The notes under the pieces: generated by a model
Database searches by the model: none
Told to the model about the DNA's origin: nothing
What the model saw: only the letters and a program-made list of their open reading frames with translations
Program-made: the position numbers and the translations under genes
From: a virus
Length of the DNA stretch: 64,000 nucleotides
Strand: one strand, 5' to 3'
IMG/VR virus record: IMGVR_UViG_3300041409_000599
Span: 16,461 to 80,460 of that record
Part shown: piece after piece, positions 413 to 50,300 of the stretch
Numbering within the stretch: the first letter of the stretch is position 1
Layout: each line of letters opens with the position of its first letter

Positions 413-1290
413 CCGCGATGAGCACATCTCGAATCACGCGGCCGGTTCTGCGTTATCACGGAGGCAAGTGGAAACTGGCACCGTGGATCATTTCGCACTT
501 TCCGAAACACCAGATTTACGTTGAGTCTTTTGGTGGCGGCGGGAGTGTGTTGATCTCCAAGGAACGCAGTTACGCGGAAATTTACAACGATCTTGATCTT
601 GAAATCGTTAACCTATTCCGCGTTGTCCGCGACCAGGGACCAAAGCTGATCCGAGCAATCGAACTGACCCCTTACGCGAGGGAAGAATTCAACGCGAGCT
701 TTAGGCCGTCATGCCGGCCGCTGGAGCAGGCGCGGCGCACGGTGCTCCGGAGTTATGCAGGCTTCGGTGGAAACCTGACCAGGATTACTCGCGACCTAAC
801 CCCGCAACGGACCGGCTTCCGCGACTATTCCAAAAAGAATCGGCACGCAATTCCTGCCCAGGACTGGCGCAACTGGCCTGGCGCCCTGCCGAACCTCATT
901 GATCGGCTGCGCGGCGTGATCATTGAAAACCGAGACGCTATCAGGATTATCACGAAGCACGATAGCCCTGAAACCCTCCATTACGTCGATCCCCCTTACG
1001 TCCACACAACTCGACGGTTCGACGGAAACGGCCACCGTGGCCATCGCCATGAATTGACCGACGACCAGCATCGCGAACTGGCAACACTGCTGCACTCCGT
1101 CAAAGGCATGGTCATCATCTCCGGCTATCCCTGCGACCTCTACGACAAAGAACTGTACCCAAATTGGAAGCGCATTGAACGCCAACATTTGGCCGACGGA
1201 GCGCGCAAGCGCACGGAAGTGATCTGGCTAAATCAGAACTGCGTAGACGGTCTGCGCCAAATGTCATTCCCCATGGAGGAAACACAGTGA
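409..1290 (+). CDS. dam: DNA adenine methylase, D12 class (Dam-like)
   Basis: This 293-residue protein is expected to transfer a methyl group from S-adenosylmethionine to N6 of adenine in DNA. The N-terminal SAM-binding motif YHGGK lies at about 16-20, FGGGGS at 41-46 and the catalytic DPPY at 194-197, in the order typical of D12-class enzymes. Its length is normal for the family. I chose the TTG start because GGAGGA lies 6 nt upstream and the start overlaps the previous stop; an ATG nine bases later is the alternative. It overlaps the HerA-type ATPase gene by four bases. There is no partner restriction enzyme next to it, so protection of phage DNA from host restriction, or marking for packaging or replication, is the likely role. 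Confidence 0.9.
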   Translation: MTAMSTSRITRPVLRYHGGKWKLAPWIISHFPKHQIYVESFGGGGSVLISKERSYAEIYNDLDLEIVNLFRVVRDQGPKLIRAIELTPYAREEFNASFRPSCRPLEQARRTVLRSYAGFGGNLTRITRDLTPQRTGFRDYSKKNRHAIPAQDWRNWPGALPNLIDRLRGVIIENRDAIRIITKHDSPETLHYVDPPYVHTTRRFDGNGHRGHRHELTDDQHRELATLLHSVKGMVIISGYPCDLYDKELYPNWKRIERQHLADGARKRTEVIWLNQNCVDGLRQMSFPMEETQ

Positions 1291-3056
1291 AACTTTGCTT
1301 CCCCGAAAAAGTCCTCTTGCAGCACTTAATCGCCCTTGGCAAGACTGGCGCCGGCAAATCATCCGCGCTGCGCCACATTGTCGAACACCTGCTGCGCCAC
1401 AAGAAGCGCGTCTGCATTGTCGACATCAAAGGCGACTGGTGGGGATTGAAGTCCTCAGCCGACGGCAAGAGCGCAGGCTTCCCCGTGGTCGCGTTTGGTG
1501 ATTTCCGTGAGCCCAAAGCGCAGGATGTTCCCATCAACGCGCAGTCGGGCAAGCAGGTAGCTGAACTGATTGCCAGCGGCAACCGGCCGTGCATCATCGG
1601 CTTTCGTGGCTGGATGCCCAGCCAGGTCACCGACTTCTGGATTGATTTCGCTTCCACGCTGTTCAACAAGAACGAAGGCGAACTGTTCGTCGTCATCTCC
1701 GAATGCCACAACTATGCGCCCAAGGGCAAGGTGCTGGACCCTAAAGCCGGAAAGGTGCTGCATTGGACGAACCGGCTATTGAGCGAAGGCCGCGGCCTGG
1801 GCATGACGTTCCTGCTCGATTCGCAGCGGCCACAGAAGGTCCACAACGACACGCTGACATCGTGCGAGACGCTGATCGCGATGCGTGTCACCCACGCAGC
1901 CGACCGCAACGCGCTGAAAGACTGGATTGACGGATGCGGCGACAAAGCTACCGGAACCGAAGTACTGAACACTGTCGCCGGGATGGCGCGCGGCGAGGGC
2001 TGGGTATGGTCGCCTGAAATTGGCTTCGGCCCGCAGCGCATCCAGTTCCCGATGTTTGAGACGTTCGATTCCTTCGCGCCGGCACAGCTTCAGAACAAAG
2101 TCAGTGACAGCGGATGGTCGACGGTCGATCTCGAAGTGGTCAAGAGCAAGCTGGCCAAGGTGATTGAGGAAGCGAAGGAGAACGATCCTGCTGCGCTGAA
2201 GGCTGAGGTAGTCCGCTTGAAGCGCGTCGTCATTGAGCAGCAGACCGCGCAAGGTAAGCCGGATCATAGCGAGCAGGCCATTCTGAAGCGGATACAAACG
2301 GCCATCGAAGAACGCGACAAGGATTGGCGCTTTGCCATTGACGTGTTCAAGCGGCAACTCAATAACCGCTATGTTGAAGTGGTCGAGACGATAGGGAAGG
2401 CATTCAAAGACATTTCTTTTCCATGGCCGGCCGATGTCCTGGTCGTATCGCCACCGTCTGCGAAAGTCGGCGGCATAGCAATCCGCACCGATCCCACCAT
2501 GTCGCGTACCCAGGTCGACATCCAAGACCGGAATGGGCGCAGACCGGCGATCACCAACATCGGCTCCAGCAATGGCCACGGCGGTGAATCGCTCAGCGGA
2601 CCGCAGCGCCAGATACTGCAACGTCTGGCCGAGTTTACGGCCTGCGGCCGTTCGTCTGTTCGCCTGTCATGGCTGGCTGCTTCTATGGGGACCACGGTTC
2701 GCGCCCGCGGCTTTGAAGAAAATATGCGCTCGCTAACCAAAGGCGGATTCGTCACAAAGCCTGATGGTGAATCAGTTAGGGCCACAGCAGAGGGGGAAGC
2801 GATAAGTGGTCGCCCCTCGCCACTATCAGGAGAAATCCTGCGCGCCAAGATCACGCAAATGCTCTCCGGTTCACAGGCTGACATCCTCCGCTACCTGATT
2901 GAAAGCCAGAGAGAAGAAGCGATTGAGCACGTAGCGGCTCGTTTCGATACGACCGTGCGCGCCCGCGGATTCGAGGAGAACATCCGTTTCCTGCGCAGCA
3001 ATGACCTGATTGAAACCAACGGCGGCCAGGTCAGAGCGGCAGACTGGATTTTGTAG
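1287..3056 (+). CDS. HerA/FtsK-type P-loop ATPase with two C-terminal winged-helix-like repeats
   Basis: This is a 589-residue protein with Walker A GKTGAGKSS at 18-26 and a Walker B-like strand ending ISE at about 139, as in HerA and VirB4-type DNA-pumping ATPases. The middle (about 270-400) is charged and probably coiled. The C-terminus holds two copies of a roughly 85-residue unit, each with TTVRARGFEEN (from about 469 and 555), which look like tandem winged helices that could contact DNA. The GTG start overlaps the methylase stop (GTGA). In a phage early operon it may act in recombination, DNA processing or defence. The family call is solid; the job is inferred. No NurA-type nuclease partner is adjacent. 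Confidence 0.8.
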   Translation: MKLCFPEKVLLQHLIALGKTGAGKSSALRHIVEHLLRHKKRVCIVDIKGDWWGLKSSADGKSAGFPVVAFGDFREPKAQDVPINAQSGKQVAELIASGNRPCIIGFRGWMPSQVTDFWIDFASTLFNKNEGELFVVISECHNYAPKGKVLDPKAGKVLHWTNRLLSEGRGLGMTFLLDSQRPQKVHNDTLTSCETLIAMRVTHAADRNALKDWIDGCGDKATGTEVLNTVAGMARGEGWVWSPEIGFGPQRIQFPMFETFDSFAPAQLQNKVSDSGWSTVDLEVVKSKLAKVIEEAKENDPAALKAEVVRLKRVVIEQQTAQGKPDHSEQAILKRIQTAIEERDKDWRFAIDVFKRQLNNRYVEVVETIGKAFKDISFPWPADVLVVSPPSAKVGGIAIRTDPTMSRTQVDIQDRNGRRPAITNIGSSNGHGGESLSGPQRQILQRLAEFTACGRSSVRLSWLAASMGTTVRARGFEENMRSLTKGGFVTKPDGESVRATAEGEAISGRPSPLSGEILRAKITQMLSGSQADILRYLIESQREEAIEHVAARFDTTVRARGFEENIRFLRSNDLIETNGGQVRAADWIL

Positions 3057-8714: not shown

Positions 8715-9791
8715 TTAGCGCCGTCTGCCCATCCGCGCCGGCTGGCCCTGCGCCTTCACCCGGTCCACTGTTTGGTTGTAGCGAATTAACGCACTCGTCA
8801 AATCACCCTGCTCGGCCAGGGGCGCAACCGCTTCCTTGGCAATCTGCTGCATCGTTTTGATCGTCGGCTCGGGATGGCTCATTGCCAGATACTTAGCCGC
8901 GTCGCGGGCATGGTTGTCTTTGTCGACGATTGCTTCAGCCACGTTCCGCGTCAACAGCTGCTGGTTCGTCAGCTTAACGCGCCTGGTCCGCATCATCTCC
9001 CACAGCAGGTTGGGGCAATCCCAGTTGTGCAGCCCTGGCTGCGGCTTTTCTGACCAGTTGCGGCAAACGATCTTCAGCGTCGGCTCACGGTGCTCAAGGT
9101 TTGACCAGTGCATCATTACGCGGGCGGCAAAGCTTACGTCCATACGATCGCCAGCAAACGGCGAGAACAACTCTATCCCCTGCTCGCAATACAGTTCGTT
9201 GATTGACTTCGCGCGCTCCTGGACCTTGTTCGGTGTTTGCGATTGCTGCATGGTATCAGGGAAGATCGACGGGTCGGCGTAACAGGCCGAGACTTTCCTT
9301 ATGTCGTCCATCTTCTTCAGGTACGGAACGTGCTGCCAGACTTCGAGTCCCGGCATGTAGTACTCGCCGCAGAAGATGATCACGCCATCGTTGTCGACAT
9401 ATGCGCGCTCGAAGGCCGTTGGATTTGTCTTGCCATGGTCAAACCCGGCTTCGCAGCGCCATGTCGGATGCGGCTTGTAGCGCATATCGGTAATTACGAT
9501 TTTGTCCCAGTGGTCGCGCAGAACGCTGGCGAATACCAGTTCACCGCCGCCGGCATCATCCATAATTTCCTGCTCTCTGTCCCAGTCGGCCTGGGATGTG
9601 TAGAGGGCGCGCTGAGTTTTCTTCCACGCCGGGTTGAGGTTGGGGTCGCGCTCAGGGTCTGCTGAGTAGTGCAGCTTGATTACGGGAATGCCGCCCTTCG
9701 TGCGTCTCACGCTCATACCGCGGACGATTTCAACAGGCGTCTGCGGCGTCACTTCGCGGGATTTCCTGAGTGCTTTCTTTACATCCATCAC
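8715..9791 (-). CDS. terL: Large terminase, nuclease half (separate gene)
   Basis: This 358-residue protein has the RNase H-like nuclease fold of large terminases: GFDHG at 116-120 carrying the first acidic residue, YADPS at 171-175 the second, and DNHARDAAKY near 292 the third. It would cut concatemeric phage DNA at packaging. It has no Walker motifs; those are in the next gene upstream. Its GTG start overlaps the TGA of the ATPase gene, so translation is coupled. Most phages have both domains on one chain, so this is a split terminase. Confidence 0.85.
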   Translation of the reverse strand: MMDVKKALRKSREVTPQTPVEIVRGMSVRRTKGGIPVIKLHYSADPERDPNLNPAWKKTQRALYTSQADWDREQEIMDDAGGGELVFASVLRDHWDKIVITDMRYKPHPTWRCEAGFDHGKTNPTAFERAYVDNDGVIIFCGEYYMPGLEVWQHVPYLKKMDDIRKVSACYADPSIFPDTMQQSQTPNKVQERAKSINELYCEQGIELFSPFAGDRMDVSFAARVMMHWSNLEHREPTLKIVCRNWSEKPQPGLHNWDCPNLLWEMMRTRRVKLTNQQLLTRNVAEAIVDKDNHARDAAKYLAMSHPEPTIKTMQQIAKEAVAPLAEQGDLTSALIRYNQTVDRVKAQGQPARMGRRR

Positions 9792-10558
9792 AGTGAAATG
9801 TCCCTCTTCGCGTCAGCAAACCAGCCAGGGTTGGCCGAACTGTTGAACACGATCTTTCCTTTGACGGCTGAGATTGATTCGTTGTAGCAATCGCCGGCAT
9901 AGGGCTGGAATGCCGACTCGTCGTTGAACAGTCCCCACGGGTGATAGAACCTGATCTTGCCCTTGCCGCTGGGAATACGCAGGATCTCGGAACCGTTGGC
10001 AAAGGCCAGTATCTCTGCCGCCTGGGTGTCCGCCGGCTTTACCAGTGGGTGAGCCTCTTTCAGCCAGTCCGGCTGATTGCCGTAGAGCACCTTGGCGTAA
10101 TCAACCAGTTCTGTCGCTTTCTCGCCTTCCATGGTTTGGAACAGCACGCGACGTTCCGGGAACTTCATCGCCTGCCACAGAAAGAATGCGACGATGCCCC
10201 ATGACACCATCATGTCGCGGCTCTTCTCCCACCAGTAAACCGGCTCGTCCGGATCCATCAACAGATCGAACATTGGCTGGAAGTAGGGCTTATCGGGGAA
10301 AGGCTCGTAAGGGCTGGGGCGATGTTCTTCTACCCAGTGAGGATTGAATGTTTTGGTGAAATGGCGGGCCCAATGGTAGGGATGGCGCGTAGCGTCGGCG
10401 ACCTTCTCCATCAGCGTTTCAAGCTGCTGGGCCTGTTCGGTGGCTGAGCCTTGGGCCTGGGCTTTAAGACGGCGGGATTGATTGAGTTGGACCTGCGCAA
10501 AGACGCGCAAATCCAACGGCGCCGGGTTCTCCGGCGACCACTGATCTAGTATGCTCAT
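9788..10558 (-). CDS. terL: Large terminase, ATPase half (separate gene)
   Basis: This 256-residue protein has a terminase-type P-loop (KSRDMMVSW, 112-120), a Walker B strand ending FNDESA (211-216) and the coupling motif NSSANPG (239-245), after which the chain stops. In a normal large terminase the nuclease domain follows directly. Here it is on the next, overlapping gene. The stop is real in the sequence given (TGA at 9788-9790). It lies between the small terminase and the nuclease half, so order is kept. A sequencing frameshift is possible, but the clean four-base overlap argues for a true split. Confidence 0.85.
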   Translation of the reverse strand: MSILDQWSPENPAPLDLRVFAQVQLNQSRRLKAQAQGSATEQAQQLETLMEKVADATRHPYHWARHFTKTFNPHWVEEHRPSPYEPFPDKPYFQPMFDLLMDPDEPVYWWEKSRDMMVSWGIVAFFLWQAMKFPERRVLFQTMEGEKATELVDYAKVLYGNQPDWLKEAHPLVKPADTQAAEILAFANGSEILRIPSGKGKIRFYHPWGLFNDESAFQPYAGDCYNESISAVKGKIVFNSSANPGWFADAKRDISL

Positions 10559-10610: not shown

Positions 10611-11093
10611 TTAGTTGACGCTGCCCTGGCCGCCGCTCTCAGACTTTGGCCAGTATCCGTGCTCTACAAAGAATTCCTTTTCCGCTTCGCTCTTGCCTTC
10701 CAGTTGTTTCCTGAACTGATCGTGCTCCTGGCCTTTCACCATGAAGCCCTGCATCTCAGCCACTAGGCGCAACGCCGCCACCTGGCCTGTGATATTGCTG
10801 TTCGTTTCTTTGGGCAGCATGTCGGCCAGCTTCAGCGCTCGTTCCGTCACGTCGATCTTGCTGGCCTTGGTGGCAATCTTCCGGGCTGATACCTCAACCA
10901 TCTGCTTCCGCTTTTCCTCGATCGCCTTGGCAATCTCTGGTATCTGCATCAGACGAAACGAGTCGCGTGCCGGATCGGAGAACCCAGCATCGCGCGCCGC
11001 CTGTACGTCATCACCCTTCCACGCCAGCACGTAGGCCATGCGCATTTCCGTCCACTTGAATTTGTTCTTGCCGGTTCTCTTGTGTGACGCCAT
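10611..11093 (-). CDS. terS: Small terminase subunit (DNA recognition)
   Basis: This 160-residue protein has an N-terminal HTH-like region (KWTEMRMAYVLAWKGDDVQA then AARDAGFSD) and a helical middle, the usual plan of small terminase subunits that recognise the packaging site. The C-terminus is charged and ends GGQGSVN. Position directly upstream of the ATPase half supports the call. It abuts the stop of the giant polyvalent gene. A 52-base gap with no obvious signal separates it from the ATPase gene. Confidence 0.75.
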   Translation of the reverse strand: MASHKRTGKNKFKWTEMRMAYVLAWKGDDVQAARDAGFSDPARDSFRLMQIPEIAKAIEEKRKQMVEVSARKIATKASKIDVTERALKLADMLPKETNSNITGQVAALRLVAEMQGFMVKGQEHDQFRKQLEGKSEAEKEFFVEHGYWPKSESGGQGSVN

Positions 11094-14000
11094 TACCGCT
11101 CCTCAAAGGCATGCAGTGCACCTTCGCGTTCGCCTTCAATGGGATTGCCCCGCATGGTGCTGACGGCCTTCTTCAGCATGATTGGCCGGATAATCGCTTT
11201 CTCTTCCGGCGTGGCCGCGTTGAATACCTTCTTTACGTCTGAGTAGCGATCGAGGCGCGGCAGGTAGAAGCTCAACTCGTCCAGCGCCTGCTTCTTCAGT
11301 TGGGCTTTGCGCTCCTTCTGGCTCAAGTCGCCGGACTCGATGCGCGCGCGCTTGTCGTCCAATTGCTTCTGCAGGTCCGGAGTCAGCGCCATGTTCTCGC
11401 GCAGGAGTTCGTGCATCAGCCGCACCGCGGTCGATTGCGTTTCGGAATTGGGGAAGGTAACGCCAGCCTGGTAGGCCAGCAGGTCGCGGGTCGGAGTCTC
11501 TGACCGTTCTGCCTTTTCTACCTGCTGCGTCGGGCCCAGGGCGCCAGTAATCTTTTTGCCCACATCATGCGCGATCGTTGCCGCCGGCGCATGCCGATCG
11601 TAGATCCTGCTGCCGCTGTAGAAGTCACGATTGAACGCCAACTCCGCCGCTGTCTTCGGCAGGACCGCCGGCGTGAATGTTCCCTGAATCAATTCCTCTG
11701 GCGGCTTGTTGCCTTTTACAATCTCATTCACCAGATACGGCACCGCCGAAGCGCCAGAGCGTACCATGCGCGCCTTGGGGTCGCCCGTAATCTTCTTCAG
11801 CAGTTTGTCCCACATCTCATAGGCCACAAACGTCAGCAGCCCCAGCATGAACAGGTGATCAAACCCGCGCGCCCGGTCCTTCCATGTGCTGTCCGGGCTA
11901 GCCGCTTCCTTCAACATCTGCCCGTAGGATTTCCACACGCCATAGTGGTACCGGCTGAATACCGTCAGCATGTGGCTGTTCATGAATTTCGAAAGACCAT
12001 GCGAGTTGAGCACCCGTGAAGGGATCCGGTAATCAGGGATGTGCTTCGCCGTCTCCGCAGCAGCCTCTTCAAAGGGCATGCCGCCCAGGGCTTTCTCATA
12101 GGTCGCCTGCAGAAAAAAGATATCGTTCGACATCCACGTCATCTTCTGCCCCAGCTTGTACAGCCCTTTCATCATGTCCAGATGGTTGGCGTAGCCGGCC
12201 GCTTTCGCCAGCATGCTCGCCACGTCGGTGTGATGGTCAAGGTAGCCGAGGATTGAATCCACCAGGTGCTTATGCAGTTCGCGCAGGTCCTGGCGATGGC
12301 TCATCATCGGCGCGCCGTGGTCCAGCGCCTGCACAAAGTCGTCGTTCTGCGTTACCACGGCTTTGATTGCCCGAATGCCGGCTTTGAACGAACGCGGATA
12401 CCTGAACACGTTGAAATTGCCGGTGACGCCTCGTTCCACCAGCCAGTGATTGCCGATGTTATAGACGTGCCGCGCGGGATTGAGCACCAGGGACGCTGTC
12501 ATCAGGTTGCCGATCTTTTCCATGGCGCCGGCAGGGTCGGCATGCAGTTCGTCGGCAAAGCGGTCCAGCGTTTCCGCCAGATGCTTTTCAAAATAGTAGC
12601 CATTGAATTGCGGCAGGTTCACCGTGCGCCAGCCGTCCGGAGGCATCTCGCCATGCTCCGGCTTGAAACTCAGGCTCTTGAACTCAGGGTCTTCCTTCAT
12701 CGCATCGAGCGCGTCATTGGCTCGTTCCGCGCGCCGAAGTTGCAGATAGTCCACCACGGTGTTGGCCAGCGCGTTCTTGTAGTAGCGAACGCCGGTGTGC
12801 TCCTCAATCTCTTTAGTTGTGGCCTGCTTCAACGTCCAGCGCTGGCCGTCTTTATCGTTGAACTCATCTCCCACCTGCAAGCCGGGCTTGTCTTTGGCGA
12901 ACTCTGAAGCGCTGCCGTTATCGAACGCCGTCATGGTGTCGCCATTGCGATGGACCACCACGCGCTGGCCGTCTTCGTCTTCCGCGGCAAACATCCGGCG
13001 CCCTTTGAGAGAACTGGCCGCTTTCGATAGCACGTTGCCTTTGCCGGTGCCGCCTTTGCCGCGCATGGCGCGTTCCATCTGGTTGTTCTTGCCCTGGACC
13101 TCGCGATGGATATAACCGTCGTCCTCGCCCATGGGAACGCCGGCCTTGTTCAGCTTGGCGCGCATTTCGGAATTGGCGTCCATCAGCGGCTGTACTACGC
13201 CCTCAAGGTTGGCCTGCTGCCGGGCCGTCAGCGCTTCGCCGCTATCTTCTTTATGGTGGTAGATGGCGGCCTGGTCTTCGGGCGAGGTTGTCGGGCCCAC
13301 GGCCTTCAGCAGCTTGATCACGCGCAGCACGTCGGCATCTGACTGCTTGCCCAGCTGGTAGAGCGTGTCGTCAATATTCTTGGCCGCTTTGTTTAATCCC
13401 GGTTCCAGTACTCGGTCCCAGGTCTTTTCTTTCGCGGCCTTCACCAGATCGGCTACGGCCGATGGAACGTTGAGACGGGCAAAGCCGGATTCACCGCTCT
13501 TGTCCTTGAGCGTCTTCAGTCCGACGGTTACAGTCTTGCCGTCGTCGGTCTTGACCCGGGCAATATTCATTTCCGGGTGGACGTACTGCACTTGACCGCT
13601 GCGGCCATCGGCCAGGGTTACGGTTTCGCCTTTGGCTGGTGCGCCCGGCTGATTGAATAACCCGCTCTGCCCGCTCGCTTCCGAATCGCGAAACAGCGGC
13701 GAGTTGCGTTCCATTTCGCCGGTCTTGGTGCTTATCGATTCTTTTGGCGCGGTAATCTCGCGCGAGAGGTCTTCGCCGTGCTTTTCAGCAACGGCTTCCT
13801 TTTCTGCCGCAACATGAGGTTCCATGCCGGGCAGTGTTGGCTCTTCAGATTTGTTTTTTGGTCTGCGTAGCTCTTCCAGGTCGGAAGGTTTTACTGAGGC
13901 TTGCCGGTCGGCGTTTCCTGCATCTTCTTCTGCATGTCCTGGATGCTCTTGAACTCGTTCAGCACCCTGCCCTTCGCTCCCGGTGACAGCTTTTCGTAGC

Positions 14001-17000
14001 TCGGCTCTGACGGCTTGGTAGGCTCTGCTCTTAACGTCTTCCGGTTTGTGGTATCCACTGGCTAACTCCTTGGCGGACTTTTCCAGAATGTCATTGACCG
14101 GGCCGGTGTGCGAACTCAGTTTATTGTACGCCTCCTCGGCCTGCCCGGCGGCATCGGCAATCTTTCTGTTCTGCTCGGCCTTCAGCTTCTGGCCCTTCAC
14201 CTGGCCCAGCGCGGACGCTTTGTCCTCGGTCGCCACTGATCCAAACACCCTGCGCTCTTTTGCTATCTGCGCTTTGATGTGCGCCGATATCTCCGCTTTC
14301 TCCAGAGCCAGAGAATGGATCTGCTGATTGGCGCCGAACAATCCCCCTTGCTCAATGGTCTTGTTGCCGGAGTTGCCCACGAACCGCGCCAGCTCCGCGA
14401 CCGTCGCATCAGTAACGCTCTTGCCTTGCTTCTCGCGCTTGTCGAGCAGTTTTAGAATCGCTTCCTGCTGCGCCGGATCACTCGTCGCCTGTCCGATGGC
14501 CACGCCGCGGCCTTCGCTCATCTTGCCCGTGGCCACACGCTCAAAGATCGATTGATCGAGTTTAGATAGCGCCAGGCCGTCCGCGGCTTTGGACTCGCCC
14601 AGGGAGATGCCGTGCTTGCTCAGGTCGGCGGGTGAGATGCCGCTCTCGCGGAAGAATTTTGCCGCGTCGACGGCTGTCCCTCTGCCTTCAGCAATGTTCT
14701 GCAGGGCGCCCGTTGCGCGCGCTTCGCCTGCGGTGTCAACATTCAAATGGCGCGCAAGAAGATCATGTGCGCCGTTTTCTTTTGCCAGTTGAACGCGATG
14801 GTGTCCATTGACCACGTAAGTCTTGCCATCGGCGGGATTGTGCCAGATGGAGACCACGCCAGCCAGATCGTCATTCCATTTCTGCCCGGAAAGAAGGTTG
14901 GTTACGCCGTGTTCGTTGGTGTTGAGTTTGTACTGAAATTCTTTTGGCGCGATCGTGAGGTCATCCACGCGGACGCGGCCAGCCTGCCCTTTGGCCGGGA
15001 TGCCTTCAGGCAGTTGATGCTCAATCTCTGATTCGTGGAAGGTCTGGGGAGCTACTTCTTCGGTTCCACCTTGAGTGGCGGCTTCATGTCCGACTTCAGT
15101 AATTCCTCTAAGCTCACCACGGGCACGCTCTCCGGCTGCTTCTCTGGCGGTCTTGTGTTTGTGGAGTTCGGCTTCTGCGGATTTGAGGTCGGTTCCTGTG
15201 CCATAGCTAAAGTCTACTCCTTGGAGCGTGACGGTATTTCCATCTGCATCGGTGACGGTAAACTCGCGGTTCCTGAGGATCGCGCGCGCCTTTTCCAGCC
15301 CGGCTTTCAATTGCTCCGGCGATTCACCGCGATAGAGAAATTCATCACCCTTCTGATGGTAAGCGTCCAGTCCGGCTTCTTTCGCCGCTTCGGCTTTGGC
15401 CACCAGAATAGTGTTGCCTGCCTTGTATCCAAACTTGTCATTGAAGGCTTTCAGCGCGTCGGCGTCCGACATGGCCACCGCCGGCGACGAGGGCGCATCG
15501 TGGAAGGCGCGGCCATTCGGAATTGGCATCTCTGTGTGTGTGCCGTCGCCATTGTCCAGCCGCGACGTGTGCAGTTCCCGCGCCATCTCATGCGGCTTCA
15601 TATCCGCCACGCGCTTGCGCTCGGCCACGTTGGTGCGGCGGTCCGGCTTGTTGCCGTATACCGTACCTTTGCCAGAATCGTAATCGGGAAAGAGCACGAC
15701 TACATTGTGTGGGCCGTACTTTTTCCCTGCGGATCGGCCACCTTCGTGGCGCAACCCGTGATATCCCATCTCCACCAGATTCTGGGAGATGTCGCCGAGC
15801 AGGTCCTGAATTTCGTAAGCCGGGATGCGCTGCGCCGCCGATTCATCCCGTAATTCTGAATAGATGTGCGTGCCCTTGGTGCCTTCAGGAAAGGCAGACA
15901 TGCCCAAGGGGGTGTACTGTTCAATTCGTTTATTGAAGAGCTGGAGAACTTTGTCCGGCAGAGGCTTTTCCAGATCCAGAACTTTTGCGCCTGGTAACTC
16001 GGCTGAGAGCACGTGACGCTGTTCTGTCCTACCCTCGTCAGGTTTTCTGGTTCGCTTGTAACCTTCTGCCACTTTCGGATTATCGGTAAGGTAAAGCCCT
16101 GGACCGTAAATGTTCAATTCACCGGAGAACCCTACCGGATCAGCCTCTTTCAGTTCCGTCAAACCATGGGGCGTGCCGTGATAAAACGTCTTGCCGCCGG
16201 GCAATTCCTCGTGTGTCAATGGTTCATATTTGTAGCCGCCTTCAAGGGGTATGCGTTCTTCTGTCCCATCTCTCTTGCTGACGACAACATGGTCCACAGG
16301 GATCTTGCCGCCCTCCAGATGGCTGCCGCCTTCATATTTGGCAACATGTTCCGGCTTCACGTAGCCCAGAGTGACGTGCGGCTTATACTCGCCGTGGTCG
16401 TCCGGCTTAAACTCGCCGGCGCCCTCAACCGCTGAACGCAAGGCGTTAAGTTCGGGAGATTTCTCCACGTGCACAATGACTGGATGGGCACCTTCCTTGG
16501 TGGCCGGGAATGATCCAGTCTTGCCGACCGTGGCCTCAAACGGCGCTATCTTGGCCGCCGCATCCTTTATATGGGCGATGGCTTCAGGGCTGTCGTCTTT
16601 CAGGCCATAACGCACCGTAACGTGCGGAGTCTTTTCCTTGCCGTTCGGCCCCAGATGCTCTTCCGGGATGGCCGCAACCGCTTCGGTATGCCGCTGGCCC
16701 AGCTCGCTCTTGGGCTCGATATTGACTTGCGTGGACGCATATTCATGCGCTGGCTGGATGTCATTCTCGGTGAATACTTTAGGAGCAGCTACTTCCTGTT
16801 TTGCTCCCTCATTTCCGGTCAGATTTTGGGTAGATTGAGACTCCTGGGGCACACCAGGAGCCTGTGTTTCGCCCAAGTCAGTCTGAACCGGCTGCGGAGT
16901 GGGTGCCTGTGGCTCTTGAGCCGGTGTTGCCTTCGGTGGACGCGAACTGGCTAGGAACTGTCTGACCGGTGCTGCCGGCGTACTTGTGGCTTCAGGTGTC

Positions 17001-18550
17001 CTATTGGCAGCTTCCGGTGAGCTTTTGGCCGGTTGCTGTGAGCTTTCGGTCTTTACTTGCACCTTGGCCGCTTCAGCCGTGGCCTTATCGTGCGCTGCCA
17101 CGCCATCATTAATAAGCTTGGCCGCCAGTGCTTCCGCTGCGTCGGGCGTCTTCGCGATGTGGATCTTGCCATCCACCACGACCTTGCCCTTGTTGTCGGC
17201 AATCCACTGCGTCAGGTTCTGGTGCGCCTCGTCGATAACCTGGTTGCGTTTTCCTTCCGGGACTTTTGCGATCGTCTGCGCCAGATGGTCAACCTGCGCG
17301 CCCGAAAGCTTGTTGCCAAACTCCTCGCCCGGAGTGGGTGGCGGCGGCGCCGGAGGCGGTACCGCTGGCCTTCCTGCAACAACGTTCTTGGCCATCGTCG
17401 CGGAGGCGTTGGCCTTCACCATCGACGCAACCTCAGAAGGCATCGGCCTTGGAGGTGCTTCAGGATTGTGCGGCGTACCGGTTATTTCTCCCGGCCCGGG
17501 TCCAAGTTGGCGTGGCTGGCCGGTTCTTCCAGTTGATGTGTCGCCTTCCGGTGCGGCTTTGTCCTCATAAGAAAATCCTCGCGAGAACTTTCGTCCGAAT
17601 CGCGTATCACCGACTTTGGCCCCAATCGTCACGTCTTCCGGGGTCACGCGGACACCGCCAGATACCCTGTCACCAAAAGCGGAGAACTCTCCTATCCGGG
17701 TTGGACGTGGTCCCGGGCCTTTACCGTAGCCGGACTTCAGCCCGGAAACCACGCCCAGGGCTGACGGCGCAAACATCGACACCGTGCGAATCAGGTCTTC
17801 ATCTTCAGGCGATACATGCCCGTGGACGGCTGCGCCTGCGCCCTCGCTGGCGAGCATGCCTGCGCCGAATCCCAGCGCTGTCTTGGCCGGGGCCATCACA
17901 CCAGATGCCGCTACCAGCGGCAAACTGACATCGCCTACGCCCTTGATGGTTTCAGCAATGCCGCTCATTTCCTGCCGCCGGGCTGCTTCGGGCATCCGTG
18001 TAAGCGGTACGCGCTGGCCGGTACGAGGATTGGTAAAGAACGCGCCGTTGTCCGGTACCTGCTGGCTTTCAGCTTTCTTGATGTCGCTGGCACCGCTGGC
18101 AATCTGCTCCGGGCCAGTCGTAAACGGACGCGCCGGATCATAGATCGGCATATCCGCTTCAGGCACGGCAGAGAGTGGAACGCGCTGGCCAGTCCGAGGA
18201 TTCGTGAAATGGCCGTCCGTTGGTTCCTTCGGTGCACCTGCAACCGGAGCCAGCGGCATACCGGCGGATTCACTGGCGGCAGTCTGTGGACTCTTCGCGC
18301 GCGCCACGGACGCCTGTGTGTCTTTGTCCGGCTGGTTCCAGAGCGTTCCAACCACATCAGAAAACTTTGGCGCAGGACGAGACGCGGCCGGTGCTTTGTA
18401 TCCGGGAGAGCCGGGGCCAAGGGGATTGCCGCCGAGCGCAGTTCCGGTGCTGGGTTTGGCTATCTCGTCTTCGCCGAAGGTGATCGGCTTGGACGACTGG
18501 CCGGACTGATCGATGTCCTGATCGCTAAAAACTACCGGGGAATCGGGCAT
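11093..18550 (-). CDS. Giant polyvalent protein with 2H phosphoesterase, ADP-ribosyltransferase-like, GGDEF-like and ParB-like domains
   Basis: This 2,485-residue protein combines several domains. The N-terminal linker has two copies of FTNPRTGQRVPL (about 115 and 172) and a hydrophobic patch near 205-245. A 2H phosphoesterase (LigT-like) follows, with HVT motifs near 643 and 725. Next is an ADP-ribosyltransferase-like domain with YHGT (about 790) and GPGLYLTD (about 816). A degenerate GGDEF-like domain has KGDEFLYRG (about 1067) and a SYGTG...HKHKTARE end. A ParB-like domain has NGHHR (about 1249). Long helical regions follow, with NPARHVYNIGNHW near 2020 and a hydrophobic helix near 2245. 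This is the polyvalent-protein plan of phages and conjugative elements, thought to enter the new host with the DNA. It sits between tail genes and terminase, as internal virion proteins do. Confidence 0.85.
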   Translation of the reverse strand: MPDSPVVFSDQDIDQSGQSSKPITFGEDEIAKPSTGTALGGNPLGPGSPGYKAPAASRPAPKFSDVVGTLWNQPDKDTQASVARAKSPQTAASESAGMPLAPVAGAPKEPTDGHFTNPRTGQRVPLSAVPEADMPIYDPARPFTTGPEQIASGASDIKKAESQQVPDNGAFFTNPRTGQRVPLTRMPEAARRQEMSGIAETIKGVGDVSLPLVAASGVMAPAKTALGFGAGMLASEGAGAAVHGHVSPEDEDLIRTVSMFAPSALGVVSGLKSGYGKGPGPRPTRIGEFSAFGDRVSGGVRVTPEDVTIGAKVGDTRFGRKFSRGFSYEDKAAPEGDTSTGRTGQPRQLGPGPGEITGTPHNPEAPPRPMPSEVASMVKANASATMAKNVVAGRPAVPPPAPPPPTPGEEFGNKLSGAQVDHLAQTIAKVPEGKRNQVIDEAHQNLTQWIADNKGKVVVDGKIHIAKTPDAAEALAAKLINDGVAAHDKATAEAAKVQVKTESSQQPAKSSPEAANRTPEATSTPAAPVRQFLASSRPPKATPAQEPQAPTPQPVQTDLGETQAPGVPQESQSTQNLTGNEGAKQEVAAPKVFTENDIQPAHEYASTQVNIEPKSELGQRHTEAVAAIPEEHLGPNGKEKTPHVTVRYGLKDDSPEAIAHIKDAAAKIAPFEATVGKTGSFPATKEGAHPVIVHVEKSPELNALRSAVEGAGEFKPDDHGEYKPHVTLGYVKPEHVAKYEGGSHLEGGKIPVDHVVVSKRDGTEERIPLEGGYKYEPLTHEELPGGKTFYHGTPHGLTELKEADPVGFSGELNIYGPGLYLTDNPKVAEGYKRTRKPDEGRTEQRHVLSAELPGAKVLDLEKPLPDKVLQLFNKRIEQYTPLGMSAFPEGTKGTHIYSELRDESAAQRIPAYEIQDLLGDISQNLVEMGYHGLRHEGGRSAGKKYGPHNVVVLFPDYDSGKGTVYGNKPDRRTNVAERKRVADMKPHEMARELHTSRLDNGDGTHTEMPIPNGRAFHDAPSSPAVAMSDADALKAFNDKFGYKAGNTILVAKAEAAKEAGLDAYHQKGDEFLYRGESPEQLKAGLEKARAILRNREFTVTDADGNTVTLQGVDFSYGTGTDLKSAEAELHKHKTAREAAGERARGELRGITEVGHEAATQGGTEEVAPQTFHESEIEHQLPEGIPAKGQAGRVRVDDLTIAPKEFQYKLNTNEHGVTNLLSGQKWNDDLAGVVSIWHNPADGKTYVVNGHHRVQLAKENGAHDLLARHLNVDTAGEARATGALQNIAEGRGTAVDAAKFFRESGISPADLSKHGISLGESKAADGLALSKLDQSIFERVATGKMSEGRGVAIGQATSDPAQQEAILKLLDKREKQGKSVTDATVAELARFVGNSGNKTIEQGGLFGANQQIHSLALEKAEISAHIKAQIAKERRVFGSVATEDKASALGQVKGQKLKAEQNRKIADAAGQAEEAYNKLSSHTGPVNDILEKSAKELASGYHKPEDVKSRAYQAVRAELRKAVTGSEGQGAERVQEHPGHAEEDAGNADRQASVKPSDLEELRRPKNKSEEPTLPGMEPHVAAEKEAVAEKHGEDLSREITAPKESISTKTGEMERNSPLFRDSEASGQSGLFNQPGAPAKGETVTLADGRSGQVQYVHPEMNIARVKTDDGKTVTVGLKTLKDKSGESGFARLNVPSAVADLVKAAKEKTWDRVLEPGLNKAAKNIDDTLYQLGKQSDADVLRVIKLLKAVGPTTSPEDQAAIYHHKEDSGEALTARQQANLEGVVQPLMDANSEMRAKLNKAGVPMGEDDGYIHREVQGKNNQMERAMRGKGGTGKGNVLSKAASSLKGRRMFAAEDEDGQRVVVHRNGDTMTAFDNGSASEFAKDKPGLQVGDEFNDKDGQRWTLKQATTKEIEEHTGVRYYKNALANTVVDYLQLRRAERANDALDAMKEDPEFKSLSFKPEHGEMPPDGWRTVNLPQFNGYYFEKHLAETLDRFADELHADPAGAMEKIGNLMTASLVLNPARHVYNIGNHWLVERGVTGNFNVFRYPRSFKAGIRAIKAVVTQNDDFVQALDHGAPMMSHRQDLRELHKHLVDSILGYLDHHTDVASMLAKAAGYANHLDMMKGLYKLGQKMTWMSNDIFFLQATYEKALGGMPFEEAAAETAKHIPDYRIPSRVLNSHGLSKFMNSHMLTVFSRYHYGVWKSYGQMLKEAASPDSTWKDRARGFDHLFMLGLLTFVAYEMWDKLLKKITGDPKARMVRSGASAVPYLVNEIVKGNKPPEELIQGTFTPAVLPKTAAELAFNRDFYSGSRIYDRHAPAATIAHDVGKKITGALGPTQQVEKAERSETPTRDLLAYQAGVTFPNSETQSTAVRLMHELLRENMALTPDLQKQLDDKRARIESGDLSQKERKAQLKKQALDELSFYLPRLDRYSDVKKVFNAATPEEKAIIRPIMLKKAVSTMRGNPIEGEREGALHAFEER

Positions 18551-29425: not shown

Positions 29426-29863
29426 TTAGCCGACCACCACGCGAATGTCTTCTTCGCGGATTTGCGCCACCTGATGGCCGCCAATCTCGATCTGCATAGC
29501 CGAGTACTTGGTATAGACCACGTAGTTTCCGACTTTCACTTCCAGCGGCACCCGCAGGCCGTTTTCAATGTAGCCGCTGCCAACGGCAATCACGATGCCG
29601 CATGTCTGTTCCGCCCGCGCCTCTTCCGGAATGATGATGGAGGAATAGTGCTCGCTCGGCGGCAATGGCAACACCAGTATCTTGTCGCCCAGGGGACGCG
29701 CTTTAATTGCCACCAGGTCGTCAGCGACATTGAGCGCTTCTGTGACCAGATGCGCGGCCCGGACCATCACGGGAAGGTTGGCGTCGGTGACCTCGTCCTG
29801 TTTCCTCGCGCTCAGGCGATTGTCGGTGACTTTCAAAATAGAATCGGTTTTGGTCATTGACAT
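29426..29863 (-). CDS. groES: Phage-encoded GroES co-chaperonin with N-terminal extension
   Basis: Residues about 54-145 match the 10-kDa chaperonin: KARPLGDKILVL, then IIIPEEARAEQTCGIVIAVGSG, VGNYVVYTKYSAMQIEIGG and the end EEDIRVVV. GroES caps GroEL; phage versions such as T4 gp31 let GroEL fold the capsid protein. The chain has about 50 extra residues in front of the chaperonin domain. No later start with a ribosome site is clear, so I keep the long form. It lies two genes downstream of the major capsid protein, which fits capsid folding. It overlaps the upstream gene by one base. Confidence 0.85.
   Translation of the reverse strand: MSMTKTDSILKVTDNRLSARKQDEVTDANLPVMVRAAHLVTEALNVADDLVAIKARPLGDKILVLPLPPSEHYSSIIIPEEARAEQTCGIVIAVGSGYIENGLRVPLEVKVGNYVVYTKYSAMQIEIGGHQVAQIREEDIRVVVG
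29806..29819 (-). promoter_or_regulatory. Hairpin with loop CTGAGC, copy 3, inside the GroES-like gene
   Basis: A TCGC/GCGA stem with loop CTGAGC (minus strand) followed by GAGGAA, as in the two leader copies. Here it lies in the codons of the N-terminal extension (about residue 18). Either the extension is a translated leader or the match is chance. Confidence 0.3.
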
Positions 29864-30252
29864 TACTGCTTCCTTCCTTTCACGTCTTCGGTCATGAGCA
29901 TGGTTCCCAACATAAATACTGACGCAAAGACCTTGCCGTCGTATCCCACCAGATTGACCTGGTTGGGCAGCACTTGCAGGTTCTGCATGATTGGCTTTTT
30001 GTTGACGGTGATGGTGGGCATATCAGGATCGGGGCTCACCGGAGTTCCCGGCGCCGCTTCCTCAATCGTGCCCAGTTGTTCATACGCCATGATGGCGATA
30101 GGGTGCATCACCAGGCTGGCGCATTTCTCGTTGCTGGCAATCCACTTCACCGTATCAACGCGCATAAAGCGCTGCGCCATCGCGAATTGCTTTCTCAGTT
30201 CCGCATCGCTTGCGTTCTCAAGGGTAGGGGCATTCTGTTTGCGGTTCGTCAT
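29863..30252 (-). CDS. Small head-region protein, unknown
   Basis: This 129-residue protein has a basic helical N-terminal third (AELRKQFAMAQRFMRV) and a beta-rich end (LVGYDGKVFASVFMLGTML). It lies between GroES and the HAD phosphatase and overlaps both (one and four bases). There is no family match from memory. A capsid accessory role is only suggested by position. Confidence 0.55.
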   Translation of the reverse strand: MTNRKQNAPTLENASDAELRKQFAMAQRFMRVDTVKWIASNEKCASLVMHPIAIMAYEQLGTIEEAAPGTPVSPDPDMPTITVNKKPIMQNLQVLPNQVNLVGYDGKVFASVFMLGTMLMTEDVKGRKQ

Positions 30253-30716
30253 GCGTTCTGCACCGCCTTCAGGTAATCGCTGATCGTGATTCCAGTGTTG
30301 AGAACAACTTGTACGCAGCGATCATCCCAGAGTTCGATCATGCCGAAGTCCTTGGTGCAGGTGATATCGAGAACGGCACCAAAATGCTTATCGCACCAGA
30401 CCTGAATAAAAGACCTGGCGTTCATCGTTTCATTCCAACGCTTGAGCCATTCCTTGTGTTCGCTCTCAATACGTTCCAGTTCTGCGGGTGCACTAACTGC
30501 ACCTTCGGCGAGCTTCTTATAGAGCCATGGCTGCGTTGGCTCCGGAGGGCAATACACTCTTGCCGTGAAAATCTTTACCGTCTTGCCTTCAGCCAGCCAT
30601 CCCTTCACTCGTTCCACCATCGGCATGATTGGTTCGCCGATGTGCTCCGGGCCTTTCCATCCCGCGTAATGCGCCAGCGTGCCGTCTAGGTCTACGCCGA
30701 TCCAACCGTTGTGCAT
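30249..30716 (-). CDS. HAD-superfamily phosphatase
   Basis: This 155-residue protein has the HAD motif I GVDLDGTLA (7-15, nucleophile Asp9), motif II FTAR (50-53) and a late ELWDDR carrying the acidic motif IV. This size and pattern fit small phage phosphatases related to polynucleotide kinase 3'-phosphatase and 5'-nucleotidases. It may dephosphorylate nucleotides or nucleic-acid ends; the substrate is not shown. GGAGGAAAG precedes the ATG. It follows the major capsid gene after 84 bases that hold AGCAATTAG repeats. Confidence 0.8.
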   Translation of the reverse strand: MHNGWIGVDLDGTLAHYAGWKGPEHIGEPIMPMVERVKGWLAEGKTVKIFTARVYCPPEPTQPWLYKKLAEGAVSAPAELERIESEHKEWLKRWNETMNARSFIQVWCDKHFGAVLDITCTKDFGMIELWDDRCVQVVLNTGITISDYLKAVQNA

Positions 30717-49273: not shown

Positions 49274-49295
49274 CTATTTGGGCTATTCTGCTTAC

Positions 49296-50300
49296 ATGAA
49301 ACGCAAGTTACAGCAACCAAAGACCTTGCAGGACGCTATCAAATACTTCAGCGATGAAAGAATCTGCATTGATGCCGTCGCTAATATGCGCTGGCCTGAT
49401 GGTAAACCAGCCTGTCCAGCTTGCGGACATACTGAGCACTACTGGCTTGACACTCAGAAGCGCTGGAAGTGCCGTGAGTGCTCAAAGCAGTTCTCGGTTA
49501 AGGTTGGCACCATCTTTGAGGATTCGCCGCTCTCTCTAACCAAGTGGCTCCCTGCACTCTGGATGCTAGTTAACTGCAAAAATGGAATCAGCAGCTACGA
49601 ACTCGGTAAAGACCTTGGGGTGTCTCAGAAGTCCTCTTGGTTCATGTTGCACCGCCTGAGACTAGCCCTGAAAAACGGCTTCACTTCTAAACTCGGAAGC
49701 GAAGGTGGCCCTGTTGAAGCTGATGAAACTTTTGTCGGCCCTGATCCGCGCCGTATGCACAAATCCCGCAGAGCAAGAATTCTCGCCATCGCTGGCAATG
49801 ACCGCAGCAAGAATAACCGCGCTCCCGGAAAAACTATCGTCATGGGAATGCTTGACCGCAACATGCGTCAGGTTCGAGCTATGGTCATCCCCGATGTGAA
49901 GCGCGTCACTCTGCAAGAGAAGATTCTCGACAACGTGCAAGGTGGCGCACACATGATTACCGACGATTTTCCGAGCTACAAATATGCGCTTGCTGAGAAC
50001 TTCACCCATGACGTTATCGATCACGTTAAGGGCTACGTCGATGGGCAAGTGCATACCAACGGAATTGAAAATTTCTGGTCGCTCCTGAAACGTGGACTAC
50101 GTGGAACCTATGTTGCGGTTGAGCCGTTTCACCTTGACCGCTACGTCGATGAGCAAGTATTCCGCTTCAACAATCGCGCAACCAAAGACCGCAACATGAC
50201 AGATGCCGACCGCTTTCAACAGGCACTATCTCAGGTTGCCGGGAAGCGTCTCACGTTCGCTGAATTAACCGGCAAGACCGGCGATGCGACGTGTTTCTAA
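49296..50300 (+). CDS. IS1595-family transposase
   Basis: This 334-residue protein has an N-terminal zinc ribbon (Cys at 40, 43, 59 and 62), then a helix-turn-helix region (ISSYELGKDLGVSQKSSW), then the DDE domain: VEADETFVG with Asp143, MITDDFPSY with Asp222 or Asp223, and HTNGIENFWS with the N/E near 254-257. It cuts and joins the element ends. I use the ATG at 49,296; an upstream in-frame TTG lacks family match. There is no ribosome site, and the promoter position suggests a leaderless message. Confidence 0.92.
   Translation: MKRKLQQPKTLQDAIKYFSDERICIDAVANMRWPDGKPACPACGHTEHYWLDTQKRWKCRECSKQFSVKVGTIFEDSPLSLTKWLPALWMLVNCKNGISSYELGKDLGVSQKSSWFMLHRLRLALKNGFTSKLGSEGGPVEADETFVGPDPRRMHKSRRARILAIAGNDRSKNNRAPGKTIVMGMLDRNMRQVRAMVIPDVKRVTLQEKILDNVQGGAHMITDDFPSYKYALAENFTHDVIDHVKGYVDGQVHTNGIENFWSLLKRGLRGTYVAVEPFHLDRYVDEQVFRFNNRATKDRNMTDADRFQQALSQVAGKRLTFAELTGKTGDATCF

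What the first reader, a model, noticed from the sequence alone, without database searches (positions are those of the whole stretch)
11093..18550. A 2,485-residue polyvalent protein with four different catalytic-type folds
Seen: two HxT motifs of a 2H phosphoesterase, a YHGT...GLYLT ADP-ribosyltransferase-like region, a KGDEF plus HKHKTARE GGDEF-like region and an NGHHR ParB-like region on one chain. Known: polyvalent proteins of phages and conjugative elements carry such mixes and are thought to protect incoming DNA. Inference: this protein is packed in the virion and ejected. The combination of GGDEF-like and 2H phosphoesterase domains, which could make or break cyclic nucleotides, next to an ART is unusual.
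Basis: partly seen in the sequence, partly recalled or inferred. Interest (0 to 1): 0.8.

Follow-up and report, generated by a model that had tools for sequence, protein, structure and literature searches.

The report
Modular phage protein with swappable enzymes
A phage carries one giant protein, probably packed in the virus particle and injected into the bacterium, that strings together a cyclic-nucleotide-cutting enzyme, an ADP-ribosyltransferase, a cyclic-nucleotide-making enzyme and a ParB-like DNA-binding module as exchangeable cassettes; this kind of protein was already known, but here the cassette swapping and the closest relatives of each part can be seen.

Summary
The 2H phosphoesterase is firm (Pfam 7e-18, both HxT, confident model). 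So is the GGDEF palm domain (profile vs PDB 6e-6, confident model; orthologues pass the Pfam cut-off). The ART is good (three motifs; profile hits PARP-type mono-ARTs, E=0.003) but could not be modelled. The 'ParB-like' region folds like ParB/Noc N-domain plus helix-turn-helix; this module is elsewhere fused to portal and MuF proteins.

Best reading: a polyvalent, virion-delivered ejection protein (Iyer et al. 2017), a known kind. New detail: 37 proteins share its constant C-terminus and about 30 its constant N-terminal segment. Between these ends enzyme cassettes are swapped: the 2H cassette is 83% identical to an orthologue whose upstream flanks are 41-45% identical, and the ART sits in another slot there. 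Among solved structures the 2H domain is nearest Acb1 (anti-CBASS) by sequence profile. The GGDEF keeps metal and catalytic residues but has K in the first motif position and Asn at the base-reading position, so activity is open. Virion packaging is inferred, not shown.

The parts
11093..18550 (-). single ORF, 2,485-aa polyvalent protein (P0001)
   Evidence: intact, ATG start; coding-type composition (GC3 0.66, GC2 0.44)
17579..17962 (-). constant N-terminal segment, residues ~197-324, Gly/Ala-rich hydrophobic stretch, shared by about 30 phage giant proteins
   Evidence: HMM from residues 180-330: 31 proteins; 45-51% identity to orthologues L126/L128/L095
16235..16759 (-). 2H phosphoesterase domain, residues 598-772, HVTV and HVTL active-site motifs
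   Evidence: PF13563 6.6e-18; invariant H and T in 32 relatives; nearest solved structure Acb1 1.9e-5; AlphaFold pLDDT ~95; Foldseek CPDase/Usb1/AKAP18
15671..16195 (-). ADP-ribosyltransferase domain, residues ~786-960, motifs YHGT / GLYLT / PHNVVVLF; inserted cassette absent from this slot in all relatives found
   Evidence: PF18760 16.5 bits, below cut-off; profile A12 vs PDB: PARP14/10/15 E=0.003; L060 ART 28.8 bits; unaligned in every row of A7; model unreliable here
15104..15646 (-). GGDEF (diguanylate-cyclase palm) domain, residues ~969-1149, D1029/D1031, N1037-D1038, K1067-GDEF, K1133...R1136; GN instead of GD; no RxxD inhibitory site
   Evidence: pLDDT ~95; Foldseek DosC/TpbB/PleD/SiaD; phage CN1 solo GGDEF TMt 0.80
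13931..15001 (-). ParB-like module, residues 1184-1540: ParB/Noc-type N-domain (NGHHR 1248-1252, NIAEG 1285-1289) plus helix-turn-helix and helical tail
   Evidence: phrog_21 portal-family profile 2.6e-72; at least 510 related viral stretches; Foldseek Noc 7nfu 2e-5, KorB, ParB-CTP structures; invariant G-H-x-R, N, D in 33 relatives
11450..13384 (-). constant C-terminal region, residues 1723-2367, ~640 aa, helical with hydrophobic stretches, no named family
   Evidence: 56-59% identity over 640 aa in L126/L128/L095; 37 proteins; not LPD38 by profile comparison; model poor, pLDDT 54
10611..11093 (-). downstream neighbour: terminase small subunit, start overlapping the giant gene's stop
   Evidence: phrog_51 1.4e-4; same position after the giant gene in L095, L126, L127, L128, L174
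8715..10558 (-). downstream neighbours: terminase large subunit in two genes (9788-10558 ATPase, 8715-9791 second part)
   Evidence: phrog_2 and phrog_5653; same two-gene arrangement in L128 and L157
19053..25773 (-). upstream conserved block (889, 324, 156, 317 and 452 aa genes) that precedes the giant gene in relatives; tail/ejection-type position
   Evidence: synteny table

Best explanation
This is a polyvalent ejection protein of a tailed phage, probably infecting Acidobacteriota. Its constant N- and C-terminal regions most likely serve assembly into the virion and passage into the cell. The middle carries exchangeable effector cassettes that act at once after DNA entry. The 2H domain probably destroys cyclic or 2',3'-cyclic nucleotides made by host defence (Acb1-like). 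The ART domain modifies a host macromolecule with ADP-ribose. The GGDEF-related domain makes, binds or competes for a cyclic dinucleotide. The ParB N-domain plus HTH binds DNA or nucleotide and may hold the protein on the entering genome. Shown by computation: the ORF, the domain homologies, conservation of catalytic residues, the conserved gene slot and the cassette exchange. Inferred: packaging, ejection, enzymatic activity, substrates and DNA binding.
For: Domains. Conserved slot between the tail-type block and TerS/TerL in L095, L126, L128, L174 and others. The ParB module is fused to Mu-type portal (L020), MuF plus zeta toxin (L077), RelA/SpoT (L018), LPD22 plus zeta toxin (L017) and LPD38 plus 2H (L026). 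In Prochlorococcus phage P-SCSP1a the same module lies on a 2,571-aa protein in the block following gp11/gp12, the position where T7-like phages carry their ejected core proteins: (T7 comparison from general knowledge). Cassette exchange: 2H 83% identical to L126 while its upstream flanks are 41-45%; L128 has 2H 80% but GGDEF 31%; ART absent from this slot in all relatives while L126 carries an ART elsewhere. 2H of 32 relatives: nearest solved structure by sequence profile is Acb1 (1.9e-5), and 31 of 32 match the Pfam Acb1 model at E<=0.1. Published framework: PMC5512222.
Against: No virion protein has been measured. No metallopeptidase and no LPD domain was recognised in this chain. This 2H domain scores 23.7 bits against the Acb1 model (cut-off 27) and also resembles RNA cyclic phosphodiesterases; by fold alone CPDase, Usb1 and AKAP18 rank highest. 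The GGDEF has Lys in signature position 1 and Asn at the base-reading position; PMC6456294 counts only G/A/S in position 1 as active. The ART model is unreliable. No parS-like site or recurrent palindrome was found. The portal gene of this phage was not identified.
Confidence: 0.66

Rival explanations
1. The protein is virion-delivered, but the 2H domain is an RNA enzyme (end repair of 2',3'-cyclic phosphates, or a Usb1-like RNase) rather than an eraser of defence signals, working with the ART on the host translation machinery.
For: Best Pfam family is 2'-5' RNA ligase/cPDE (6.6e-18); TIGR02258 RNA 2',3'-cyclic phosphodiesterase 7e-7; Foldseek lists CPDase, Usb1 and 2'-5' RNA ligase-like proteins; Iyer et al. 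also proposed an RNase role.
Against: By sequence profile Acb1 is the best solved relative and 31 of 32 family members match the Acb1 model; no RNA ligase was seen among the neighbours scanned.
Confidence: 0.3
2. The GGDEF and ParB cassettes (perhaps also ART) are no longer enzymes. They are binding modules, for example a cyclic-dinucleotide sponge and a DNA tether, on an otherwise structural ejection protein.
For: K at signature position 1 and Asn at the base-reading position; no inhibitory site; a single GGDEF per chain; ParB HTH-type fold.
Against: Metal Asp, Asn-Asp, G-D-E-F and the K...R pair are conserved across the polyvalent GGDEF clade, and several members keep GD; conservation of the catalytic set argues for retained chemistry.
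Confidence: 0.35
3. The protein is not packaged but made during infection and acts in the cytoplasm; its place next to the terminase is operon convenience.
For: Solo GGDEF relatives in Yuavirus-type phages lie in non-structural blocks near antirestriction genes, and solo copies occur in Acidobacteria MAGs, so the enzyme does not need packaging.
Against: The whole giant gene keeps its slot between tail-type genes and terminase across divergent phages; its ParB module is fused to portal and MuF; constant hydrophobic ends.
Confidence: 0.13

Closest known systems
Polyvalent proteins of phages and conjugative elements (Iyer et al. 2017, PMC5512222)
   Same: Several unrelated enzymatic domains on one very large chain, phage late/structural gene context; 2H, ART, GGDEF and ParB all listed there; the Acetonema example joins GGDEF and ART.
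   Different: No LPD or metallopeptidase domain recognised here; the ParB module folds like ParB/Noc with an HTH and does not match the DdrB-type Pfam model; constant ends and cassette exchange were measured here.
ParB-module giant proteins of Prochlorococcus phage P-SCSP1a (2,571 aa) and uncultured phage MedDCM-OCT-S31-C1 (1,484 aa)
   Same: Homologous ParB module (32-37% identity) on a giant protein lying downstream of gp11/gp12-type tail genes.
   Different: No detectable similarity outside the ParB module.
L126/L127, L128, L095, L163 (IMG/VR contigs)
   Same: Orthologues with constant N and C regions, same gene slot where it could be seen, overlapping cassette sets.
   Different: ART absent or elsewhere; 2H missing in L095; ParB missing and GGDEF replaced in L128.
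Acb1 (T4-type anti-CBASS 2H phosphodiesterase, PMC9117128)
   Same: 2H fold, two HxT motifs, nearest solved structure by sequence profile.
   Different: Pfam Acb1 score below cut-off; no evidence of substrate; Acb1 is a small solo protein.
Yuavirus-type solo GGDEF proteins (phrog_5594, Pseudomonas and Bordetella phages)
   Same: Related GGDEF domain, 32-40% identity, TMt 0.80 to the phage CN1 protein.
   Different: Solo proteins of about 150 aa with canonical GH..GD and S/AGDEF.

Membership tests
Polyvalent proteins (Iyer 2017) | two or more biochemically unrelated domains in one long chain | tested here: met
   2H, ART, GGDEF, ParB
Polyvalent proteins (Iyer 2017) | phage-type members encoded with virion/packaging genes | tested here: met
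   between tail-type block and TerS/TerL, conserved in relatives
Polyvalent proteins (Iyer 2017) | LPD or metallopeptidase domains (frequent, not obligatory) | tested here: not met
   none in the Pfam scan; LPDs present in relatives L017 and L026
Polyvalent proteins (Iyer 2017) | carried in the virion and injected | not testable with these tools
   needs virion proteomics
2H phosphoesterase | two HxT motifs on the bilobed 2H fold | tested here: met
   HVT 643-645 and 725-727; H and T invariant in 32 relatives; fold
Acb1 (anti-CBASS) | match to PF23474 above cut-off | tested here: not met
   23.7 bits vs 27 for this domain
Acb1 (anti-CBASS) | cleaves CBASS cyclic oligonucleotides | not testable with these tools
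   biochemical assay needed
GGDEF domain | palm fold and homology to diguanylate cyclases | tested here: met
   profile vs PDB 6e-6; model and Foldseek; this sequence alone is below the Pfam cut-off
Active diguanylate cyclase | [G/A/S]G[D/E]EF signature and Asp at the base-reading position | tested here: not met
   KGDEF and GN; criterion from PMC6456294
ADP-ribosyltransferase (ART-PolyVal) | H / Y / third-strand motifs in order | tested here: met
   YHGT, GLYLT, PHNVVVLF; profile vs PDB PARP-type E=0.003
ADP-ribosyltransferase (ART-PolyVal) | Pfam cut-off or confident fold | tested here: inconclusive
   16.5 bits vs 31.2; model pLDDT mostly below 60
ParB/Noc | N-domain with GxxR-type motif followed by HTH | tested here: met
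   Foldseek Noc/KorB/ParB 2e-5 to 1e-4, prob 1.00; G-H-x-R invariant
ParB/Noc | cognate parS-like site | tested here: not met
   no match to the parS consensus and no recurrent palindrome in the window

The most novel reading that the evidence does not exclude
Eraser and writer of cyclic nucleotides on one injected chain. The Acb1-like 2H domain removes host defence signals from the first moment of infection. The GGDEF domain, with altered base-reading residue, makes a replacement cyclic dinucleotide that occupies host receptors or keeps guard systems that sense signal loss (Panoptes-like) silent. The ParB module loads the protein onto the entering genome.
Probability: 0.08. Interest if true: 0.85.

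Novelty: new member of a known kind. Interest (0 to 1): 0.42.

Why it matters
It gives a natural series (same ends, same slot, different enzymes) with which the long-standing proposal that phages inject multi-enzyme proteins to disarm host defences could be tested cassette by cassette. The link of the polyvalent 2H domain to Acb1 makes one specific prediction testable: that anti-CBASS-type activity can arrive with the virion instead of being synthesised after infection.

Tried and rejected
Whole-protein search of viral contigs with a single sequence gave nothing, so domain alignments were used. C-terminal region as LPD38: rejected by profile comparison (probability 0.1%). C-terminal region in the phage collection: no match; in bacterial genomes: no relative. 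A 106-row alignment for folding misplaced ParB-only rows onto the 2H domain and was replaced by A7. ParB profile against PDB sequences: no match, although the fold matched. PADLOC defence models: no match. Canonical parS or recurrent palindromes: none. ART as a family-wide domain in this slot: rejected, found in this slot only in this phage.

Full report
Observation. The ORF 11093-18550 on the minus strand is intact, 2,485 aa, starting at ATG, in a virus record of 80,460 bases of which the window is 16461-80460.

Domains. (a) 2H, residues 598-772: PF13563 E=6.6e-18, both HxT motifs invariant in 32 relatives, pLDDT about 95. A profile of 32 phage relatives finds, among all solved structures, anti-CBASS Acb1 first (1.9e-5), then B. 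subtilis BSU11850 (1e-4) and plant cyclic phosphodiesterase (2e-3); 31 of 32 members match the Pfam Acb1 model at E<=0.1, although this one is below the cut-off (23.7 vs 27 bits). By fold alone plant CPDase, Usb1 and AKAP18 rank higher, so the substrate is undecided. (b) ART, 786-960: weak Pfam hit, three motifs in order, L060 homologue, profile to PARP14/10/15 at E=0.003. The model is unreliable because no relative aligns there. (c) GGDEF, 969-1149: sub-threshold alone, but orthologues pass the Pfam cut-off, the profile finds diguanylate cyclases at 6e-6, and the model is confident and matches DosC, TpbB and PleD. Residue table: the metal Asp, Asn-Asp, G-D-E-F and the K...R pair are kept; the first signature position is Lys in most of the polyvalent clade; the base-reading position is Asn here and in several relatives, Asp in others. 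In the Hypr enzyme GacA a Ser at the base-reading position goes with acceptance of other purine NTPs (PMC6456294; equating the two positions rests on the GGDEF alignment and general knowledge). That paper treats only G/A/S in the first signature position as active, so activity is open. (d) ParB-like, 1184-1540: one conserved module in at least 510 viral stretches. Its model matches Noc, KorB and CTP-bound ParB structures over about 220 residues at 2e-5 to 1e-4, i.e. N-domain plus helix-turn-helix. HTH_ParB appears below threshold in relatives L017 and L163.

Context. In relatives the ParB module is fused to a Mu-type portal (L020), MuF plus zeta toxin (L077), RelA/SpoT (L018), LPD22 plus zeta toxin (L017), and LPD38 plus 2H (L026). 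PHROG's own portal family 21 contains it at its C-terminal end. In Prochlorococcus phage P-SCSP1a it lies on a 2,571-aa protein in the gene block after gp11 and gp12. In this window the giant gene is followed by terminase small subunit and a two-gene large terminase, and preceded by five genes; this order recurs in L095, L126, L128, L174 and others. These points support packaging and ejection; they do not show it.

Cassette exchange. The C-terminal region (37 proteins) and an N-terminal segment (31 proteins) are shared; only some proteins were recovered with both ends, partly because many contigs are truncated. Against L126: N 45%, linker 41%, 2H 83%, GGDEF 69%, ParB 66%, C 59% identity. Against L128: 2H 80%, GGDEF 31%, C 57%, no ParB. 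The ART lies between 2H and GGDEF only here; L126 has an ART-PolyVal domain after the ParB module; L095 lacks 2H and ART. The steep identity jumps at domain borders are what recombination of cassettes would leave. Gain of ART in this lineage is the simpler reading, since six relatives with 2H directly before GGDEF lack it there. Eleven distinct proteins combine GGDEF and 2H; two carry all four domains.

Host. The closest genome matches to this GGDEF clade are in Terriglobales and other Acidobacteria MAGs (61% and 46% identity), and the 2H domain matches Tunturiibacter phage Tunturi_5. An Acidobacteriota host is likely but not shown.

Known versus new. Iyer et al. 2017 (PMC5512222) defined the class, listed 2H, ART, GGDEF and ParB in it, described GGDEF and ART on one chain, and proposed that 2H domains degrade defence nucleotides. 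This protein is therefore a new member of a known kind. Added here: the Acb1 affinity of the polyvalent 2H family, the ParB/Noc plus HTH nature of the portal-associated ParB module, and measured cassette exchange between constant ends. The writer-plus-eraser idea is speculative; Panoptes (PMC12657218) shows that hosts can guard against loss of cyclic dinucleotides, which is the only ground for it.

Noticed in passing
8715-10558 (-): The large terminase is encoded by two adjacent genes (ATPase part 9788-10558, second part 8715-9791, overlapping by 4 bases). Relatives L128 and L157 have the same two-gene arrangement, so it is not a sequencing frameshift of one contig.
   Followed up: partly
30249-30716 (-): 155-aa HAD-type phosphatase-like protein (VDLDGTLAHY); homologous segments occur inside the giant proteins of other phages (L134, L154, L162, L173 and others), another candidate cassette that is a solo gene here.
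   Followed up: partly
29426-29863 (-): GroES-like co-chaperonin (phrog_3188, 6.8e-14).
   Followed up: no
49278-50300 (+): IS1595/ISXO2-type transposase gene on the opposite strand (PF12762 2.8e-34), an insertion element in a virus record.
   Followed up: no
1287-3056 (+): 589-aa HerA/TrwB-like ATPase (PF01935 5.1e-7), also matched by a terminase-large PHROG.
   Followed up: no
L232:9875-10498 and L233:9902-10393: Solo proteins of the KGDEF clade in Acidobacteria MAGs, 61% and 46% identical to the polyvalent GGDEF domain; whether they lie in mobile elements was not settled.
   Followed up: partly
L002, L007, L009, L010 (Yuavirus and Vojvodinavirus phages): Solo GGDEF proteins are encoded next to or near genes annotated as antirestriction proteins in several Pseudomonas and Bordetella phages.
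   Followed up: no
61440-63857 (-): 805-aa protein with fibronectin type III repeats (PF00041 1.5e-22).
   Followed up: no
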